Source of the DNA: Pseudoselenomonas ruminantium
GTDB lineage: Bacteria > Bacillota > Negativicutes > Selenomonadales > Selenomonadaceae
Direction of reading: 5' to 3'
Length of the DNA: 64,000 bases
Assembly: GCA_015058655.1 (NCBI GenBank)
Contig: SVBX01000009.1
Span: 1-64,000, forward strand
Of this stretch, positions 6,721 to 19,080 are shown piece by piece. How positions within the stretch are numbered: the stretch's first letter is position 1; every line of letters starts with the position of its first letter. Under the pieces are notes generated by a model that had not been told where the DNA came from, ran no database searches, and was given only the letters and a program-made list of their open reading frames with translations. The translations under genes and the position numbers were made by a program.

Positions 6721-7835
6721 AGCTACAAAATTTAGCAGACCTTTCCTTTGCGGATAGAGACTCTGCAGAGATTGAATCCAATATCATAACCATAGCAGAA
6801 GGAATTTTAGGCAGGAAGCTGGCAAGGGCTGACCCTCTGAGGCTTTTCTTGCTAGGACTTGAATCCATCATCATCCAGCAACGGGAAATCATCGACCAAT
6901 CGGCCAAGATGAACCTGCTGGCTTACGCCGTGGGAGATTATCTTGATCACATCGGCATCCTTGTAGGCTGTGAACGACTAAAACCTGCCGCCGCCAATAC
7001 AACTGTCAGGTATACGCTATCAATAGCAAGGGAACAGGCCACGCTTATTCCTGCAGGAAACCGTGTCACGGCAGGCGATGGCGTGTATTTTGCTACCACA
7101 GAGACCCTTTCCATTCCTGCCGGGCAGACCACGGGGGATGTGGCGGCTACTTGCACAGTAGAGGGCGCACAGGGCAATAATTACGCCGTGGGTGAGCTGA
7201 ATAAAATCGTTGACCCTCTGCCCTTTGTGAGCAGCGTGACCAATATCACTGCTACAGCAGGCGGGGACGATAGGGAAGAAGATGATTCGTACCGGCTGAG
7301 GATCCAGCAAGCGCCGGAGAGTTATTCCTGCGCTGGCAGCAAAGGAGCGTACATCTTTTGGACAAAGACAGCATCAGCCCTCATTTCGGATGTAGCAGTA
7401 ATATCCCCGGAACCATGCAAGGTGAATGTATACCCCTTGCTTGAGGGTGGGCAGCTGCCGGGGGCGGAAATGCTGGCCATAGTCAGCAATACTTTGAATG
7501 CCAGAACCGTGAGACCACTCACAGATCAAGTGACTGTGTTGGCCCCCACGGTGAAAAGCTACAATGTCAATCTCACCTACTACATAGATTCAGACGATGC
7601 CACCAGCGCTGTGGCCATACAAGCTGCTGTGCAAAGTGCTGTCTCTGAATTCGTAGACTGGCAGAAAGAGCACCTGGGGCGGGACATCAACCCCACGGAA
7701 CTCTATTACAGGGTGAGGGCGGCAGGAGCAAAGCGGGCTGTGATTACTGAGCCTGTCTTTGCCACCGTGGCTGCCAGTGAGGTGGCCATAGAAAACACCA
7801 TCACGGTGAACTTTGGAGGATTGGAAGATGGTTAA
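6717..7835 (+). CDS. Baseplate assembly protein J (gpJ)
   Basis: A 372-residue baseplate wedge protein. Family features are the early LLAYAVGDYLDHIGILVGCERL segment, the beta-strand middle (AGNRVTAGDGVYFATTETLSIPAG), and the GGDDREEDDSYRLRIQQAPESYS motif, which is very characteristic of gpJ. The C-terminal part ends in ENTITVNFGGLEDG. Length matches the family. It overlaps gpI by 8 nt. Confidence 0.92.
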   Translation: MKLQNLADLSFADRDSAEIESNIITIAEGILGRKLARADPLRLFLLGLESIIIQQREIIDQSAKMNLLAYAVGDYLDHIGILVGCERLKPAAANTTVRYTLSIAREQATLIPAGNRVTAGDGVYFATTETLSIPAGQTTGDVAATCTVEGAQGNNYAVGELNKIVDPLPFVSSVTNITATAGGDDREEDDSYRLRIQQAPESYSCAGSKGAYIFWTKTASALISDVAVISPEPCKVNVYPLLEGGQLPGAEMLAIVSNTLNARTVRPLTDQVTVLAPTVKSYNVNLTYYIDSDDATSAVAIQAAVQSAVSEFVDWQKEHLGRDINPTELYYRVRAAGAKRAVITEPVFATVAASEVAIENTITVNFGGLEDG

Positions 7836-9588
7836 AGAGTTTAAGACCCTGAGCCTTCTGGAAATCCTCCCTGAAAGTATCAGGGGGGATCCTCAGATTG
7901 AAGCGGCGGCCGGCGCGCTGGATGCAGAACTGCAGGCCGTCACGGCAGACATCAAAGAAAATCTGCTCATAAGCAGGATTGATGAACTGCCGGAGCGTGT
8001 CCTTGACCTGCTGGCCTGGCAATGGCATGTAGATTTTTACCGCCCCCTGGGCATGGATATAGACACCAAGCGGCGGCTTATCCGTGAATCTATCGCCTGG
8101 CACCGCATCAAGGGCACCCCTGCAGCCGTGGAAAAAGTGCTGGCAGCAGCTTTCGTGGAATCCTGGGTAGAAGAGTGGTATGAATACGGCGGCAGCCCTG
8201 GCTATTTCCGGGTGACTATCTCTGATGTAATCACAGACCCGGAACAGCAGGCCGATATATTAGCGGCTATCAATAGCGCCAAAAATGAGCGCTCATGGCT
8301 GGAGGCCTTGCGCTATCTGCTGGTACTCAAGGACGAACTCACTGCCAGCGACCTGCTGGCCCTGCTGGAAGAAACCGGCTTCATTGAACGCTACCCCTGG
8401 CAAGGCAGATTTGCCAATGGTGCTTATCTGGCAGGCGGGGAGCACGGGGAGGCCTTTTGTGATGGAACCTACCAGGCTGATGGAGCCATCAGAGCCAATG
8501 GGGCGGCACAAGGGGAGCAAAATCCCCTGCAGGTGTGGCCTAATATAGCAAACGGCGAATATCAAGCCAATGGCAGTATTTGCGCCAAGTGCTGGAACCA
8601 CACCGGGCTTATCTATGCCAACTCTGTGGGCATGGAAGTTTTCGTGGATATGGTGAATCTTTTCTTGTCTGACCTCTACAAGATAAATATCTGGGCAGAT
8701 GGCAGATTTAGGGCGGATGGCACCTTCACGGCTGGCTATGATAACCCCATGGCAGAGGCCTTCACGGATACCACCAGCATGGTTATCAGCGATACTGAAA
8801 GCGCCACCGAAAAAGTAGGCGGGACATTATCCGCCCATGAGGCCGAAGAGGTAGGGCTGGTTAAACTGTTCTATGCAGATGGCGCTTTCTATCCTGGCAG
8901 GCCCATCACAGCAGATGGCAGCCGCTACGCCGGAGGCATCATGCTTGCTGATGCCTTTGACGGCCTCACCAGTGAACCCCGGAAACCAAAGCTGGCCAAT
9001 GGTCAGTATAAGGCCAACGGGGCAGAAAAGCCCAGGGCGGTGACTATCAACGCCCGCGCCAATAGTGATGAAAACCTCAGTAGCAGGATAGTCCTGACAA
9101 CTGAGGAAGTGGCAGCAGAGACTTGCAGCACCGCTGAAAGAAATTCAACCAATGTGGTCACACCTCACATGGATACCGTGGATACCGGCACCATGGCGGA
9201 TGGGCAGGCCTTGGCAGACGGCAGCCGCATGGCTGCGGGCCACATGATGGACGATGCCCTAACCTTCGCTTATGAGCCTTGCCTTGCGGATAACGTGGGT
9301 GATATTTACGCTGATGGCACCGCAAAAGCGGATGGAACCATGATGGCCATGGCGGCAGATGACGATTTCGCTATTACCGTGGGCATGGGCCTGACGGCAA
9401 ACGGCATGTGCCTTGCCAATGCGGCAGGGGCTAGAAGGGCTGATGGAGAGCAAAGGGCTGACGGCGGCACCTTCGCGGCGCAAATCTACAATGCGAGATT
9501 TAAGGCAGACGGCTCTATAAAAGCTGATGGAGCACATTTCACCGGCTTTGGCGGTGCTGTCTGTGACTACAAATATTTAGCAGCATAG
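7828..9588 (+). CDS. gpI-like tail protein fused to a long ADG/ANG repeat domain
   Basis: A 586-residue protein. Residues about 1-185 are a normal gpI domain (LLAWQWHVDFYRPLG, SIAWHRIKGTPAAVEKVL, VEEWYEYGGSPGYFRV), which links baseplate and fibres. Typical gpI proteins end near 180-220 residues. Here about 400 further residues follow, with about 21 copies of a short ADG or ANG motif, often paired about eight residues apart (WADGRFRADGTF, YADGTAKADGTM, FKADGSIKADG). This looks like a repetitive beta structure, possibly a fibre or receptor-binding part. The ATG was chosen over an upstream TTG because GGAGG lies 8 nt before it. It directly precedes the tail fibre genes. Confidence 0.85.
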   Translation: MVKEFKTLSLLEILPESIRGDPQIEAAAGALDAELQAVTADIKENLLISRIDELPERVLDLLAWQWHVDFYRPLGMDIDTKRRLIRESIAWHRIKGTPAAVEKVLAAAFVESWVEEWYEYGGSPGYFRVTISDVITDPEQQADILAAINSAKNERSWLEALRYLLVLKDELTASDLLALLEETGFIERYPWQGRFANGAYLAGGEHGEAFCDGTYQADGAIRANGAAQGEQNPLQVWPNIANGEYQANGSICAKCWNHTGLIYANSVGMEVFVDMVNLFLSDLYKINIWADGRFRADGTFTAGYDNPMAEAFTDTTSMVISDTESATEKVGGTLSAHEAEEVGLVKLFYADGAFYPGRPITADGSRYAGGIMLADAFDGLTSEPRKPKLANGQYKANGAEKPRAVTINARANSDENLSSRIVLTTEEVAAETCSTAERNSTNVVTPHMDTVDTGTMADGQALADGSRMAAGHMMDDALTFAYEPCLADNVGDIYADGTAKADGTMMAMAADDDFAITVGMGLTANGMCLANAAGARRADGEQRADGGTFAAQIYNARFKADGSIKADGAHFTGFGGAVCDYKYLAA

Positions 9589-10922: not shown

Positions 10923-12323
10923 ATGATTAAAGACCTTTCTTTGAAAGCAATCCGCGAGCAGATTATGTCCGGCATGCGTGACGTTACCTTCAAGACGGAT
11001 GACGGCGCGACCACCGAAATGGTGTATATTCCGAAGTTCACTATTCCCGCCGGTGCCTATGATGGCGGTGCTTTCCCTGCCGAACCTCTGAATCTGGGTG
11101 GCTTCTTCATCGACAAGTATCAGTGTTCGCACCAGACCGGCGATAATGCCAACATCCCCGTTTCCCTGCCGGGCCGTATCCCCTGGGCAAATGTTAACCA
11201 GACTGAAGCAAAGACGGCCTGCGCTGCCCGCGTCATTAACGGCGTGGCTTGCCACTTGCCCACCATGAAAGAATGGGCAACCGTCTGCTTCCTTACCAAG
11301 CTGCTGGGGCATGATATCCACGGCAATAACAACTATGGCAAGGATTACCGCGACAGCAACGCCTGGGGTAACTATGGCGTACCTGATAAGACCTGTGATG
11401 GCCGTGTGCTGACCGGCACCGGCCCCGTGTCCTGGAGCTGTGACGGCACCAGCAAGGGCGTGTTTGATATCGTTGGCAATGTTTGGGAGTGGATGGACTT
11501 CAACATTGAGAACGGTGTCTACACCCACCAGAAGCAGGCCCTTATCAATGATGCAGACGGCATCACGGCAGTGGATAAGACTATCACCATTGACAATGTT
11601 GAAGACATTGACGCATGGCCTGCAACTGGCCTTATCCTTATTGGCACCGAATACATCACCTATGATGCCATTGACAAGCAGACCGCTACCACGGCGGTGC
11701 TGTCTAACTGTACCCGTGGTGCCAAGAGCTCCACGGCGGCTGCTCATGCAAATGATGCAGTGGTTTATCAGCTGACGGATTACTGCGTAATCCCCGGCGG
11801 TGCTACGGCCTATTTTGCAGCCAATGTTTCTGCCAGCGCGACTTCCTTTGCCTTCAATGACCTGCTGAACGGCCCGGACAATAACGGCTTTAGTGTGGGC
11901 GATACTTTGCAGATGGGCACAGAGCAGGCTATTGTCACAGCGGTAGAGAGCAACACCCTCACCGTGAGCCGTGGCGCAAATGGTAGCACTGCCATTGCTC
12001 ATAACAGCGGCGATGCCTTCACCAAGATTTCCCCGCAGATGAGCAACGGCGATCCTGCCGGTGATGCGAACCAGTACGCAAAGATTAACACTATGCGCTT
12101 TGAATCCGACCTTGCACCCCTTGCCCTTCCCAAGAATGTAGGCACCGGCACTGAAGAATGGAAGGACGGCTTCTGGCTCCGTTCGAAAGGCTCGCGGGCT
12201 GCCCTCCGTGGCGGCGACTGGAGCAATGGCGGCGATGCCCGTTCTGGCTTCTCCCTGTCCCTCAGCCACGCGCCGTCGATTCGCTACGCTTCCTTCGGCT
12301 TCCGCGCCGCTTTGTCTATCTGA
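10923..12323 (+). CDS. DGR target protein: C-type-lectin/FGE-like variable receptor-binding protein
   Basis: A 466-residue protein likely to bind the host receptor. Residues about 30-195 match the formylglycine-generating-enzyme/C-type-lectin fold (MVYIPKFTIPAG, GGFFIDKYQCSHQ, LPTMKEWATVC, FDIVGNVWEWMDF). Residues about 205-375 are an insertion with two similar beta domains, each ending in a CTRGA or VSRGA segment followed by AHANDAV or AHNSGDA. The fold resumes at FWLRSKGSRAALRGG, and the C-terminal 44 residues (423-466) are the variable region. Twelve residues there differ from the template: 428, 432, 434, 438, 444, 446, 448, 449, 453, 455, 457 and 458. Having the variable repeat at the extreme C terminus is standard for DGR targets. 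Confidence 0.92.
   Translation: MIKDLSLKAIREQIMSGMRDVTFKTDDGATTEMVYIPKFTIPAGAYDGGAFPAEPLNLGGFFIDKYQCSHQTGDNANIPVSLPGRIPWANVNQTEAKTACAARVINGVACHLPTMKEWATVCFLTKLLGHDIHGNNNYGKDYRDSNAWGNYGVPDKTCDGRVLTGTGPVSWSCDGTSKGVFDIVGNVWEWMDFNIENGVYTHQKQALINDADGITAVDKTITIDNVEDIDAWPATGLILIGTEYITYDAIDKQTATTAVLSNCTRGAKSSTAAAHANDAVVYQLTDYCVIPGGATAYFAANVSASATSFAFNDLLNGPDNNGFSVGDTLQMGTEQAIVTAVESNTLTVSRGANGSTAIAHNSGDAFTKISPQMSNGDPAGDANQYAKINTMRFESDLAPLALPKNVGTGTEEWKDGFWLRSKGSRAALRGGDWSNGGDARSGFSLSLSHAPSIRYASFGFRAALSI
12189..12320 (+). repeat. DGR variable repeat (VR) with initiation-of-mutagenic-homing end
   Basis: Aligns without gaps to the TR at an offset of 613. In 12189-12311 there are 14 differences, all at TR adenines (A to G four times, A to C five, A to T five). 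12295-12311 is a GC-rich stretch identical to the TR. It is followed by differences at 12312 (T for TR C, the first non-adenine change) and 12320 (C for TR A), which fits the IMH/IMH* boundary where homing begins. Confidence 0.95.
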
Positions 12324-12347
12324 AATCTGTCAGCCTGATAATCTGAT

Positions 12348-12367
12348 GGCCTCGCGGTAGCGAGGCC
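12348..12367 (+). other. DGR target-site hairpin/cruciform
   Basis: A perfect 8-bp inverted repeat (GGCCTCGC with GCGAGGCC) around a 4-nt GGTA loop, starting 27 nt after the VR. An 8-bp stem with a 4-nt loop downstream of the VR is the form known to stimulate homing in phage DGRs. No T-run follows, so a terminator is unlikely. Confidence 0.75.
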
Positions 12368-12390
12368 TTAACCCCAAAGGAGATAACGAA

Positions 12391-12765
12391 TTGGAAGAAA
12401 ACAATAGCAATGCACCAACCAAAAGCGGATTTAAGGGACTTAAAATCCAAACCAAGACAGAAGATATGATTGGGTACATGTATATAGTGCTCAGGCAGTA
12501 TCCAAAATCTGAGAAATTCGTGCTGGCAGCAGAAACCAAAAGGGCGGCCCTTGAACTCATGGAGCTTATCATATCCTGCAATAAGCACTATATGAAGAAG
12601 ACCACTATGAGAGATATGGACATCCAGCTGGATACTTTGCGGGCCATGGTGAGGCTGGGGCATACGCTGGGCTTTTTGAAGAATCATCCTTATGAGGTGT
12701 TATCAGGCAAGATAGATGAGATAGGCCGTATGATTGGCGGCTGGATGAAGAGTATACAAGCATAA
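12391..12765 (+). CDS. avd: Avd, DGR accessory variability determinant
   Basis: A 124-residue, mostly helical basic protein (residues about 28-120), matching the four-helix-bundle Avd family (S23-like). Visible traits are EDMIGYMYIVLRQYPKSEKF, LAAETKRAALELMELI and LRAMVRLGHTLGFL. Avd forms a pentamer that binds the reverse transcriptase and the TR RNA and is needed for cDNA synthesis. The TTG start follows AAAGGAG. Place and length between VR and TR are typical. Confidence 0.88.
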   Translation: MEENNSNAPTKSGFKGLKIQTKTEDMIGYMYIVLRQYPKSEKFVLAAETKRAALELMELIISCNKHYMKKTTMRDMDIQLDTLRAMVRLGHTLGFLKNHPYEVLSGKIDEIGRMIGGWMKSIQA

Positions 12766-12801
12766 AATTTTAGGGTGCATGCTGTATCTGCGCACTGGCC
12801 C

Positions 12802-12933
12802 GGCTCGCGGGCTGCCATCCGTGGCGGCAACTGGAACAATGGCGGCAATGCCCGTTCTGGCTTCTACCTGAACCTCAACAACGCGCCGTCGAATCGCAAC
12901 GCTAACATCGGCTTCCGCGCCGCTCTGTCTATA
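12802..12933 (+). repeat. DGR template repeat (TR)
   Basis: Non-coding template for the VR. The core 12802-12924 has 23 adenines, mostly as AAC/AAT codons in the frame matching the target: ten Asn codons plus one Tyr and two Ile codons that start with or contain A. In the current VR, 12 of these 13 codons differ. AAY codons are the usual DGR design because A changes there give many amino acids but no stop codon. Confidence 0.95.
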
Positions 12934-13028
12934 TGTCAGAAGATGCAGGGTAAAGCTGACCCCGCATACAGTTACTTAGACAAAGGAGCATGTGTCCTTG
13001 TTTTGAAAAAAGCAAAAATAAGTTACCA

Positions 13029-13069
13029 AGCGCCCGCTCAGTAGGCAGAAAGACCGAAAAGCGGGCGCT
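13029..13069 (+). other. Perfect stem-loop in the TR-RT spacer
   Basis: A perfect 10-bp inverted repeat (AGCGCCCGCT with AGCGGGCGCT) with a 21-nt loop, 17 nt before the reverse transcriptase start. A weaker stem lies upstream (about 12981-13003). The spacer after the TR is part of the template RNA in studied DGRs and is bound by RT-Avd, so this may be its structural core. A regulatory or terminator role is possible, but the T-run is poor. Confidence 0.5.
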
Positions 13070-13086
13070 ATTCATTTAGGAGAACT

Positions 13087-14136
13087 ATGAAAACCTACAA
13101 TGACTTATACCCAAAAATCTATAGCTTCCAAAATCTCCTGCTGGCTTACCAGAAAGCTAAGAAGTGCAAGAGGTACAGGCCGGAGGTATTGAAATTCACA
13201 GAACACCTGGAAGAAAATCTGATAGACATACAAAACTCCCTTATCTACAAGACCTATGAGCCTGGCAGATATAGGGAGTTTTATGTTTATGATCCAAAGA
13301 CGCGGCTGGTGCTGGCTGCGCCGTTCCGGGACAGGGTAGTGCATCACGCCCTGTGCAATCTCATAGAGCCTATATTTGATAGAACCTTCATCTATGACAG
13401 CTACGCTTGCAGGAATGACAAGGGCACCCACAAAGGCGTGGAAAGGCTCATATACTTCCTAAGGAAAATGAAGGCCAGACACGGGAAAGTATACGCCCTG
13501 AAGTGTGATGTTCACCATTACTTCCAAAGCATAGACTGCGCTATCCTGGAGGGGCTTATCAGGAAGAAGATATGGGACAGGGAGGCTCAATGGCTTTTCC
13601 ATAAGATACTTTATAGCGCCGTGGATGAAGGCGGCAGGGCTGTGGGCGTTCCTTTGGGAAATCTCACCAGCCAGCTTTCCGGGAACATCTACCTCAATGA
13701 ATTGGATCACTTTGTAAAGCAGGAGCTGAGGTGTAAATATTATCTTCGCTACATGGATGATTTCATATTGTTGCACCCGGACAAAGCCCAGCTCCATGAG
13801 TGGCTGGAAGAAATCAAGGAGTTTGTTGAGCACAGCTTGCTGTTGAGGCTCAACGGCAAAACATCCGTATTCCCCATATCGCAGGGCATAGATTTTCTTG
13901 GGTATAGGATTTGGCCATACAAGTTACTATTGCGCAAGAAGTGCATAACGAGAATGAGGAGAGGAATGGAGCACCTAAAGAGATACAGAAATCAGATCCC
14001 TCCTGAGCATATTCAATCCGTAGTAACTTCATGGTACGGGCACACTCAGAGAGCTGATGTGCCGAATATCAAGGACTGGCTTGAGAAAGAAGCATGGCAG
14101 AATTTCGGCATAGTGCTGAAACGAAAAGAAGATTAG
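13087..14136 (+). CDS. DGR reverse transcriptase
   Basis: A 349-residue reverse transcriptase. The catalytic YMDD is at residues 222-225. Motif 4 reads PLGNLTSQ (189-196), the LGxxxSQ form that marks DGR enzymes instead of QGxxxSP. Other RT features are APFRDRVVHHALCNLIEP, DSYACRNDKGTH and the thumb-proximal GIDFLGYRIWP. There is no maturase or endonuclease domain, as expected. It copies TR RNA with adenine-directed errors together with Avd. TTAGGAGA precedes the ATG, and the holin gene begins 14 nt after the stop. Confidence 0.95.
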   Translation: MKTYNDLYPKIYSFQNLLLAYQKAKKCKRYRPEVLKFTEHLEENLIDIQNSLIYKTYEPGRYREFYVYDPKTRLVLAAPFRDRVVHHALCNLIEPIFDRTFIYDSYACRNDKGTHKGVERLIYFLRKMKARHGKVYALKCDVHHYFQSIDCAILEGLIRKKIWDREAQWLFHKILYSAVDEGGRAVGVPLGNLTSQLSGNIYLNELDHFVKQELRCKYYLRYMDDFILLHPDKAQLHEWLEEIKEFVEHSLLLRLNGKTSVFPISQGIDFLGYRIWPYKLLLRKKCITRMRRGMEHLKRYRNQIPPEHIQSVVTSWYGHTQRADVPNIKDWLEKEAWQNFGIVLKRKED

Positions 14137-16107: not shown

Positions 16108-16536
16108 TTGAATGAAAAGCAAAAACTTATCCTGGCGGGTATTGGTACTGCTCTTTTTATTGCTTTTTGTGTCGCTGCCCTTTGGTTCCTGTTCCGGGAC
16201 ATCCGAACAGACCCGGGAGCAAGTGACCCTGTCAATGAGCGACTTCAAGACCTTGAGAGAGAACAGCAGGAGACAGCAGGAGCTATTGACGCAGCTATCG
16301 AAAGAACTGCAGACAGCCAGGGAACAGCTGCAGACCTCACGGGGAGAATTGACCATAGTCAAGGCATCGTTGACGAAATCTCAATCGCAAACGATGGAGC
16401 TAGAGAGGGAGTTGGCAGAGCAGAAACAGCTGTCACAGAAGCTGCAAGCGCAATTGACAGAGCTGCAGGACTTGCAGATGAATGCCAGGAGCTCATTAGA
16501 AGCAGCGAATCAATCCTTGAAAAGTATGACAGATGA
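16108..16536 (+). CDS. Inner-membrane spanin-like protein, overlapping frame A
   Basis: A 142-residue protein with an N-terminal membrane anchor (residues about 7-29, LILAGIGTALFIAFCVAALW) followed by a long Ala/Glu-rich helix ending in SILEKYDR. This is the layout of Rz-type inner-membrane spanins or of small phage membrane proteins. The TTG start is 7 nt after AAAAGGAGG, an ideal distance. The whole gene except 4 nt lies inside another reading frame (next entry). One of the two could be a shadow; the membrane segment in both frames partly reflects a T-rich stretch. Confidence 0.55.
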   Translation: MNEKQKLILAGIGTALFIAFCVAALWFLFRDIRTDPGASDPVNERLQDLEREQQETAGAIDAAIERTADSQGTAADLTGRIDHSQGIVDEISIANDGAREGVGRAETAVTEAASAIDRAAGLADECQELIRSSESILEKYDR

Positions 16537-16648
16537 AATCAAGGCCGAAAGGGCCCAGCGGGACAAGACGGAGAAAGGACTGAGACAGCAGAAGACACTA
16601 TGGCAAGTATTGGCTATAGGGCTGGGAATATGGGCGGCAGCTAAATAG
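16112..16648 (+). CDS. Spanin-like lipoprotein with C-terminal hydrophobic segment, overlapping frame B
   Basis: A 178-residue protein in the +1 frame relative to the previous gene. Residues 1-27 look like a lipoprotein signal (VLVLLFLLLFVSLPFGSC) with a lipobox FGSC that is off-consensus at -3. Residues about 40-155 are a Gln/Leu/Glu-rich coiled coil. The end (TLWQVLAIGLGIWAAAK) is hydrophobic. A signal lipoprotein plus C-terminal membrane segment is the plan of a unimolecular spanin, which joins outer and inner membranes at lysis. Paired with frame A it also resembles Rz/Rz1. Start ATG is 11 nt from the shared ribosome site. Confidence 0.6.
   Translation: MKSKNLSWRVLVLLFLLLFVSLPFGSCSGTSEQTREQVTLSMSDFKTLRENSRRQQELLTQLSKELQTAREQLQTSRGELTIVKASLTKSQSQTMELERELAEQKQLSQKLQAQLTELQDLQMNARSSLEAANQSLKSMTDEIKAERAQRDKTEKGLRQQKTLWQVLAIGLGIWAAAK

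Positions 16649-17025: not shown

Positions 17026-19080
<2,055 letters not shown>

What the first reader, a model, noticed from the sequence alone, without database searches (positions are those of the whole stretch)
12189..14136. Complete diversity-generating retroelement in the tail-fibre region, with perfect adenine specificity
VR (12189-12320) and TR (12802-12933) align at offset 613. In the 123-bp core all 14 differences are at TR adenines: 14 of 23 adenines changed, 0 of 100 other bases. Changes are spread over G (4), C (5) and T (5). Twelve of 13 adenine-bearing codons now encode another residue. avd and an LGxxxSQ/YMDD reverse transcriptase are present. This is direct evidence that the element has worked and diversifies a probable receptor-binding tail protein.
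Basis: partly seen in the sequence, partly recalled or inferred. Interest (0 to 1): 0.92.

Follow-up and report, generated by a model that had tools for sequence, protein, structure and literature searches.

The report
Prophage tail-protein hypermutation cassette (DGR)
A virus dormant in this bacterium carries a complete, already known type of cassette that copies a short template through an error-prone reverse transcriptase to keep rewriting the tip of one of its tail proteins, probably to follow changes on host cell surfaces; a clean new example of an ordinary system, with related phages showing that it works in nature.

Summary
VR 12189-12311 and TR 12802-12924 differ at 14 of 23 template adenines and at 0 of 100 other bases. 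The element is a complete phage diversity-generating retroelement (DGR) of the BPP-1/Avd kind in a P2-like contractile-tail prophage of a Selenomonadaceae bacterium. The parts are a TaqVP-type C-type-lectin target gene, VR, a GRNA-loop hairpin (12348-12367), avd, TR, a structured spacer RNA (Rfam RT-14, 12923-13069) and a DGR-clade reverse transcriptase. A same-genus genome carries the orthologous DGR. There the VRs differ at 18 of 23 adenine columns, 4 of 100 other columns, and 15.5% of the rest of the target gene. At all four non-adenine differences each VR matches its own TR, so TR-to-VR copying has occurred since the strains split. Metagenome relatives give population-level evidence: two target genes that differ at 5/1419 sites outside VR differ at 20/26 adenine columns and 0/94 others inside it. 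It missed the hairpin, the spacer RNA, the target fold, and a baseplate-type beta-barrel inserted in the lectin-like scaffold. Activity in this very prophage and receptor binding remain inferred. New member of a known kind; low to modest interest.

The parts
10923..12323 (+). DGR target gene, 466 aa: TaqVP/FGE-type C-type-lectin-fold protein with a baseplate-type beta-domain insert (about residues 202-370) and VR at the C-terminus
   Evidence: Pfam FGE-sulfatase E 8e-8; PDB 5vf4 TaqVP E 4e-16, profile aligns both the N-terminal part and the VR; fold match 5vf4 Z 11.6 over 19-466
12189..12311 (+). VR core (variable repeat)
   Evidence: 14/23 adenine columns changed, 0/100 others
12312..12323 (+). 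VR-specific 3' end and stop codon (IMH side of the VR/TR boundary)
   Evidence: sequence identical in both orthologous VRs, unlike their TRs
12348..12367 (+). DNA hairpin GGCCTCGC-GGTA-GCGAGGCC, 8-bp GC-rich stem with GRNA loop, downstream of VR
   Evidence: fold z -5.05; conserved in L032, other stems with GGTA/GATA loops in several relatives; matches the rule of Guo 2011
12391..12765 (+). avd, accessory variability determinant (124 aa, TTG start)
   Evidence: NF033474 E 8.6e-33 over cut-off, PF22296 E 8e-31, phrog_3206
12802..12924 (+). TR core (template repeat)
   Evidence: the orthologous TR differs from this one at 4 non-adenine positions, all shared by its own VR
12923..13069 (+). structured spacer (Sp) RNA between TR and RT; Rfam RT-14
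   Evidence: 62.7 bits, gathering 48.1; at the same place in relatives
13087..14136 (+). DGR reverse transcriptase, 349 aa, LGNLTSQ and YMDD
   Evidence: RVT_1 E 2e-16, phrog_1423 E 5e-127, PDB 8ub7 E 1e-67, tree

Best explanation
This is a complete phage-borne DGR that works by mutagenic retrohoming. A transcript through avd-TR-spacer is bound through its structured spacer by Avd and the RT. The RT copies TR into cDNA with random bases opposite template adenines, and the cDNA replaces VR in the target gene, guided by the VR 3' end and the downstream hairpin. The result is a new set of up to 12-13 variable residues at the C-terminal end of a lectin-fold tail/baseplate protein, most likely an adhesin that decides which host surfaces the phage binds. 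Shown here: all parts, adenine-only TR/VR differences, concerted non-adenine change of TR and VR between strains, and population-level variation concentrated at adenine columns in close relatives. Inferred from studied DGRs: spacer-primed cDNA synthesis, hairpin use, receptor binding, and activity in this prophage today.
For: repeats and specificity; RT, Avd; RT tree; spacer RNA at the same place in relatives; hairpin and its rule; ortholog: adenine columns 18/23, others 4/100, TR and VR change together; variation between near-identical relatives; target fold; P2-like tail, holin and amidase neighbours; 42, 43 (same gene order in Bacillus phage BalMu-1 and Faecalibacterium phage Lagaffe).
Against: None of substance. 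The only second copy of this exact phage (L002) has an identical VR, and the two copies in the same-genus genome share one VR, so no ongoing variation was caught in this phage itself. VR residues have low model confidence, so their surface exposure was not shown.
Confidence: 0.97

Rival explanations
1. A DGR relic: the cassette worked in the past but is no longer active in this prophage.
For: VR is identical in the only other copy found; no expression data.
Against: All reading frames are intact, TR and VR stay matched at non-adenine positions, hairpin and spacer RNA are kept, and the ortholog, 15.5% away in its target gene, has the same intact set. A long-dead element would lose the non-adenine match between VR and TR.
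Confidence: 0.12
2. Not a DGR: VR and TR are a chance or recent duplication and the RT is a group II intron or defence RT nearby.
For: The NCBIfam and PADLOC scans list group II maturase and DRT families.
Against: None of the NCBIfam RT matches reaches its cut-off (124.8 bits against 300 for group II); the best solved relative is the BPP-1 DGR RT and the RT sits among DGR loci in the tree; mismatch pattern P 8.5e-13; Avd is over its curated cut-off.
Confidence: 0.005
3. The DGR is real but the target is not a receptor binder; it may vary for another reason, such as evading host surface defences or antibodies.
For: No receptor data; target homology is to FGE/TaqVP folds, and in TaqVP another activity is not excluded (PMC6328139).
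Against: The gene lies in a tail-gene block (baseplate J, GpU, gp25, gpI, fibre genes before it, holin after it), and the insert matches phage baseplate and tail-tip domains. Viral DGR targets are mostly tail structure proteins (PMC8144416).
Confidence: 0.1

Closest known systems
Bordetella phage BPP-1 DGR (mtd-avd-TR-brt)
   Same: Same order VR target - hairpin - avd - TR - spacer - RT; RT 39.8% identical over 334 aa; 8-bp GRNA-loop hairpin; adenine-only changes
   Different: Target is TaqVP-like with an inserted baseplate-type domain, not Mtd; host phage is P2-like with a contractile tail
Bacillus phage BalMu-1 and Faecalibacterium phage FP_Lagaffe DGRs
   Same: SUMF1/FGE-type target, avd, TR, RT in the same order; holin and endolysin follow in BalMu-1, endolysin in Lagaffe; RT-14 RNA also in BalMu-1
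   Different: RT 39-45% identical; the Lagaffe-type prophage Lagaffe_CP has two VRs (PMC11792537), here there is one
Thermus aquaticus DGR variable protein TaqVP (PDB 5vf4)
   Same: Fold match over residues 19-466 with Z 11.6, VR on VR in the profile alignment
   Different: About 100 residues longer between the N-terminal part and the VR, with beta-domains that match baseplate/tail-tip proteins (8rk3 Z 11.8; 8vjh) and Pfam Rcc01698_C in 14 of 20 aligned target proteins
Selenomonas-type phage DGRs (Selenomonas ruminantium MAG UBA6979, IMG/VR contigs)
   Same: RT 53% and target 60% identical, same insert
   Different: Different VR/TR sequence; phage genes diverged

Membership tests
Diversity-generating retroelement (DGR) | TR/VR pair with differences confined to TR adenines | tested here: met
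   14/23 A, 0/100 others, P 8.5e-13
Diversity-generating retroelement (DGR) | RT of the DGR clade with [LIV]GxxxSQ | tested here: met
   LGNLTSQ/YMDD, phrog_1423, PDB 8ub7 1e-67, tree with DGR loci and BPP-1 (deep forks weak)
Diversity-generating retroelement (DGR) | Accessory protein (Avd type here) | tested here: met
   NF033474 112.8 bits over cut-off 80
Diversity-generating retroelement (DGR) | VR at the C-terminal end of a C-type-lectin-fold target | tested here: met
   VR core ends 12 nt before the end of the gene (relatives); 5vf4 TaqVP by sequence and fold; the VR part itself is modelled with low confidence
Diversity-generating retroelement (DGR) | Hairpin with GC-rich 7-10 bp stem and GRNA loop downstream of VR (phage DGRs) | tested here: met
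   8-bp stem, GGTA loop, 12348-12367
Diversity-generating retroelement (DGR) | Structured spacer RNA between TR and RT | tested here: met
   Rfam RT-14 over gathering score, same place in relatives
Diversity-generating retroelement (DGR) | VR diversity between related genomes concentrated at TR-adenine columns | tested here: met
   Ortholog 18/23 vs 4/100; relatives 16/22 vs 1/100, 20/26 vs 0/94 and 18/26 vs 2/103
Diversity-generating retroelement (DGR) | Demonstrated RT-dependent retrohoming | not testable with these tools
   needs an experiment or read data
Group II intron maturase / DRT defence RT | Score over the curated family cut-off | tested here: not met
   group_II_RT_mat 124.8 of 300 bits; Drt families far below cut-off

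The most novel reading that the evidence does not exclude
The target belongs to a distinct subfamily of DGR variable proteins in which baseplate/tail-tip-type beta-domains are inserted into the TaqVP-like lectin fold between its conserved N-terminal part and the VR, perhaps docking the variable face on the baseplate; and the curated Rfam family RT-14 is the spacer RNA of this Avd-type DGR clade.
Probability: 0.5. Interest if true: 0.35.

Novelty: new member of a known kind. Interest (0 to 1): 0.22.

Why it matters
It is a well-resolved DGR in a Selenomonadaceae P2-like prophage with an orthologous, differently diversified copy in a sister strain. That pair gives a clean comparative demonstration of both hypermutation and TR-to-VR copying (concerted change). 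It is useful as a reference case and as a possible model for host-surface adaptation of phages of these bacteria, but it does not change what is known of DGRs.

Tried and rejected
L002 looked like a population sample but is 100% identical over 8562 bp, so it says nothing on variation. The second copy in the same-genus genome (L031) looked like a second VR variant; it has 0 substitutions and 40 single-base indels against L032, so it is read as a low-quality contig end, not biology. The first structure model (poor alignment over the insert) had pLDDT 56 and meaningless fold matches; a second alignment of 20 full-length relatives gave 68 and clear matches. An Ig-fold target was considered, since some DGR targets were once called Ig-like; the fold search instead gives TaqVP plus baseplate-type beta-domains. 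Promoter and terminator scans were at chance level. The paper that described RT-14 (Weinberg 2017) is not held; no held paper was found that names RT-14 as DGR spacer RNA.

Full report
Observation. At offset 613 the 123-bp core 12189-12311 (VR) and 12802-12924 (TR) differ at 14 sites, all opposite TR adenines (14 of 23), with 0 changes at the other 100 bases; new bases are C 5, T 5, G 4, and 12 of 13 adenine-bearing codons change the residue. If 14 mismatches fell at random over 123 columns, all would hit adenines with P 8.5e-13. No third copy was found in the genome. Beyond the core, 12312 (T vs C) is the first non-adenine mismatch and marks the 3' boundary; both orthologous VRs keep TTTGTCTATCTGA there while their TRs differ.

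Parts. The 124-aa ORF at 12391 is Avd (NCBIfam NF033474, 112.8 bits over a cut-off of 80; PF22296; PHROG 'Avd protein of DGR'). The 349-aa ORF at 13087 is a reverse transcriptase (RVT_1; phrog_1423 E 4.6e-127) with LGNLTSQ and YMDD. Among solved structures its best match is 8ub7 (E 1e-67), whose entry names it only 'Reverse transcriptase'; that this is the BPP-1 DGR complex is from my own knowledge. The next are group II/retron-type RTs at 7.6e-17. In a tree of 46 RTs it sits with loci that carry TR/VR pairs, on the same side as BPP-1, VHML, BalMu-1 and Lagaffe and apart from most of the group-II-like RTs of the same bacterial family; deep forks are weak. None of the group II or DRT models of NCBIfam reaches its cut-off.

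(a) 12348-12367, GGCCTCGC-GGTA-GCGAGGCC, folds as a DNA hairpin (z -5.05). It fits the rule for phage DGRs of a 7-10 bp GC-rich stem and a GRNA loop downstream of VR, required for efficient homing in BPP-1 (Guo 2011, PMC3240598). It is conserved in the ortholog, and different stems with GGTA, GATA or GAAA loops follow the VR in several relatives and in BPP-1. (b) 12923-13069, from the end of TR to just before the RT, is Rfam RT-14 (62.7 bits, gathering 48.1). RT-14 hits occur at the same place in L006, L009, L032 and in BalMu-1 and L090, and below the gathering score in L007, L073, L017, L081 and VHML. Every hit begins at or just after the 3' end of TR (for the TR positions), so RT-14 appears to be the DGR spacer RNA of this clade. 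In BPP-1 the spacer recruits the RT-Avd complex and an internal adenine primes cDNA synthesis (PMC12875486).

Target. The 466-aa target matches FGE-sulfatase and TaqVP, the Thermus aquaticus DGR variable protein (5vf4, E 4e-16). A profile of 20 relatives aligns to TaqVP in two collinear blocks, the N-terminal part and, weakly, the VR. The predicted model (mean pLDDT 68) matches TaqVP over 19-466 (Z 11.6), the only match that spans the whole protein; residues 203-285 match a domain of the JBD30 phage baseplate (Z 11.8, 1.6 A), and the second part of the insert matches the phage Chi tail tip by sequence. The insert is shared by the Selenomonas-type relatives and missing from the shorter Geobacillus-type targets. 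The VR itself is modelled with low confidence, so exposure of the variable residues was not tested; in TaqVP they are solvent-exposed (PMC6328139).

Context. The gene block is that of a contractile-tail P2-like phage: tape measure, base plate V, PAAR, GpU, gp25, baseplate J, gpI, fibre genes, target, DGR, holin, amidase. Host genes begin with uvrB at 17026. The window starts at a contig end; the terminase of the same phage type is on another contig of the genome (C19). The nearest named relatives place the host in Selenomonadaceae (an inference from the family grouping).

Does it work? A same-genus genome has the orthologous cassette (RT 87% identical). Its VR differs from this one at 18/23 adenine columns but 4/100 others, against 15.5% in the rest of the gene. 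At the four non-adenine columns each VR carries the base of its own TR. Hypermutation alone cannot do that; copying from TR to VR can, so homing has occurred in at least one lineage since they split. In closer relatives of the target: L003/L018, 16/22 adenine columns vs 1/100 others, 3.0% elsewhere; L082/L084, 20/26 vs 0/94, and 5/1419 elsewhere; L093/L087, 18/26 vs 2/103, and 2/1413 elsewhere. For this exact phage only an identical copy was found, so present activity is inferred.

Verdict. A complete, textbook phage DGR, a new member of a known kind. Adenine bias and C-type-lectin targets are near universal in DGRs and viral targets are mostly tail proteins (PMC8144416). Mild points of interest are the baseplate-type insert in the TaqVP-like scaffold, the RT-14 link, and the concerted TR/VR change between two strains.

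Noticed in passing
window 7813-9588: The gpI-like tail protein (591 aa) has a long C-terminal extension full of short repeats of the kind xADGxx/xANGxx (for example RADGTFTAG, ANGQYKANGAE), kept in the same-genus ortholog; function unknown.
   Followed up: no
window 16108-16648: Two overlapping open frames on the same strand (142 and 178 aa, one with a lipoprotein-like start), both kept open in the same-genus phage (L033 11-551); possibly an overlapping spanin pair.
   Followed up: no
L006, L007, L009, L017, L032, L067, L068, L073, L081, L090 just downstream of TR: Rfam RT-14 RNA coincides with the DGR spacer in many Avd-type phage DGRs, so this curated family can be given a likely function.
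   Followed up: partly
L031/L033/L032 (same-genus genome, contig 8): Two copies of the related phage about 39.9 kb apart, joined through an att-like sequence next to an integrase gene; either a tandem prophage or an assembly artefact from circular phage DNA (the first copy has only indel differences).
   Followed up: partly
window 1 and G000:C19:8557-10407: The prophage appears split over two contigs of this genome; a terminase 92% identical to that of the related phage lies on contig 19.
   Followed up: partly
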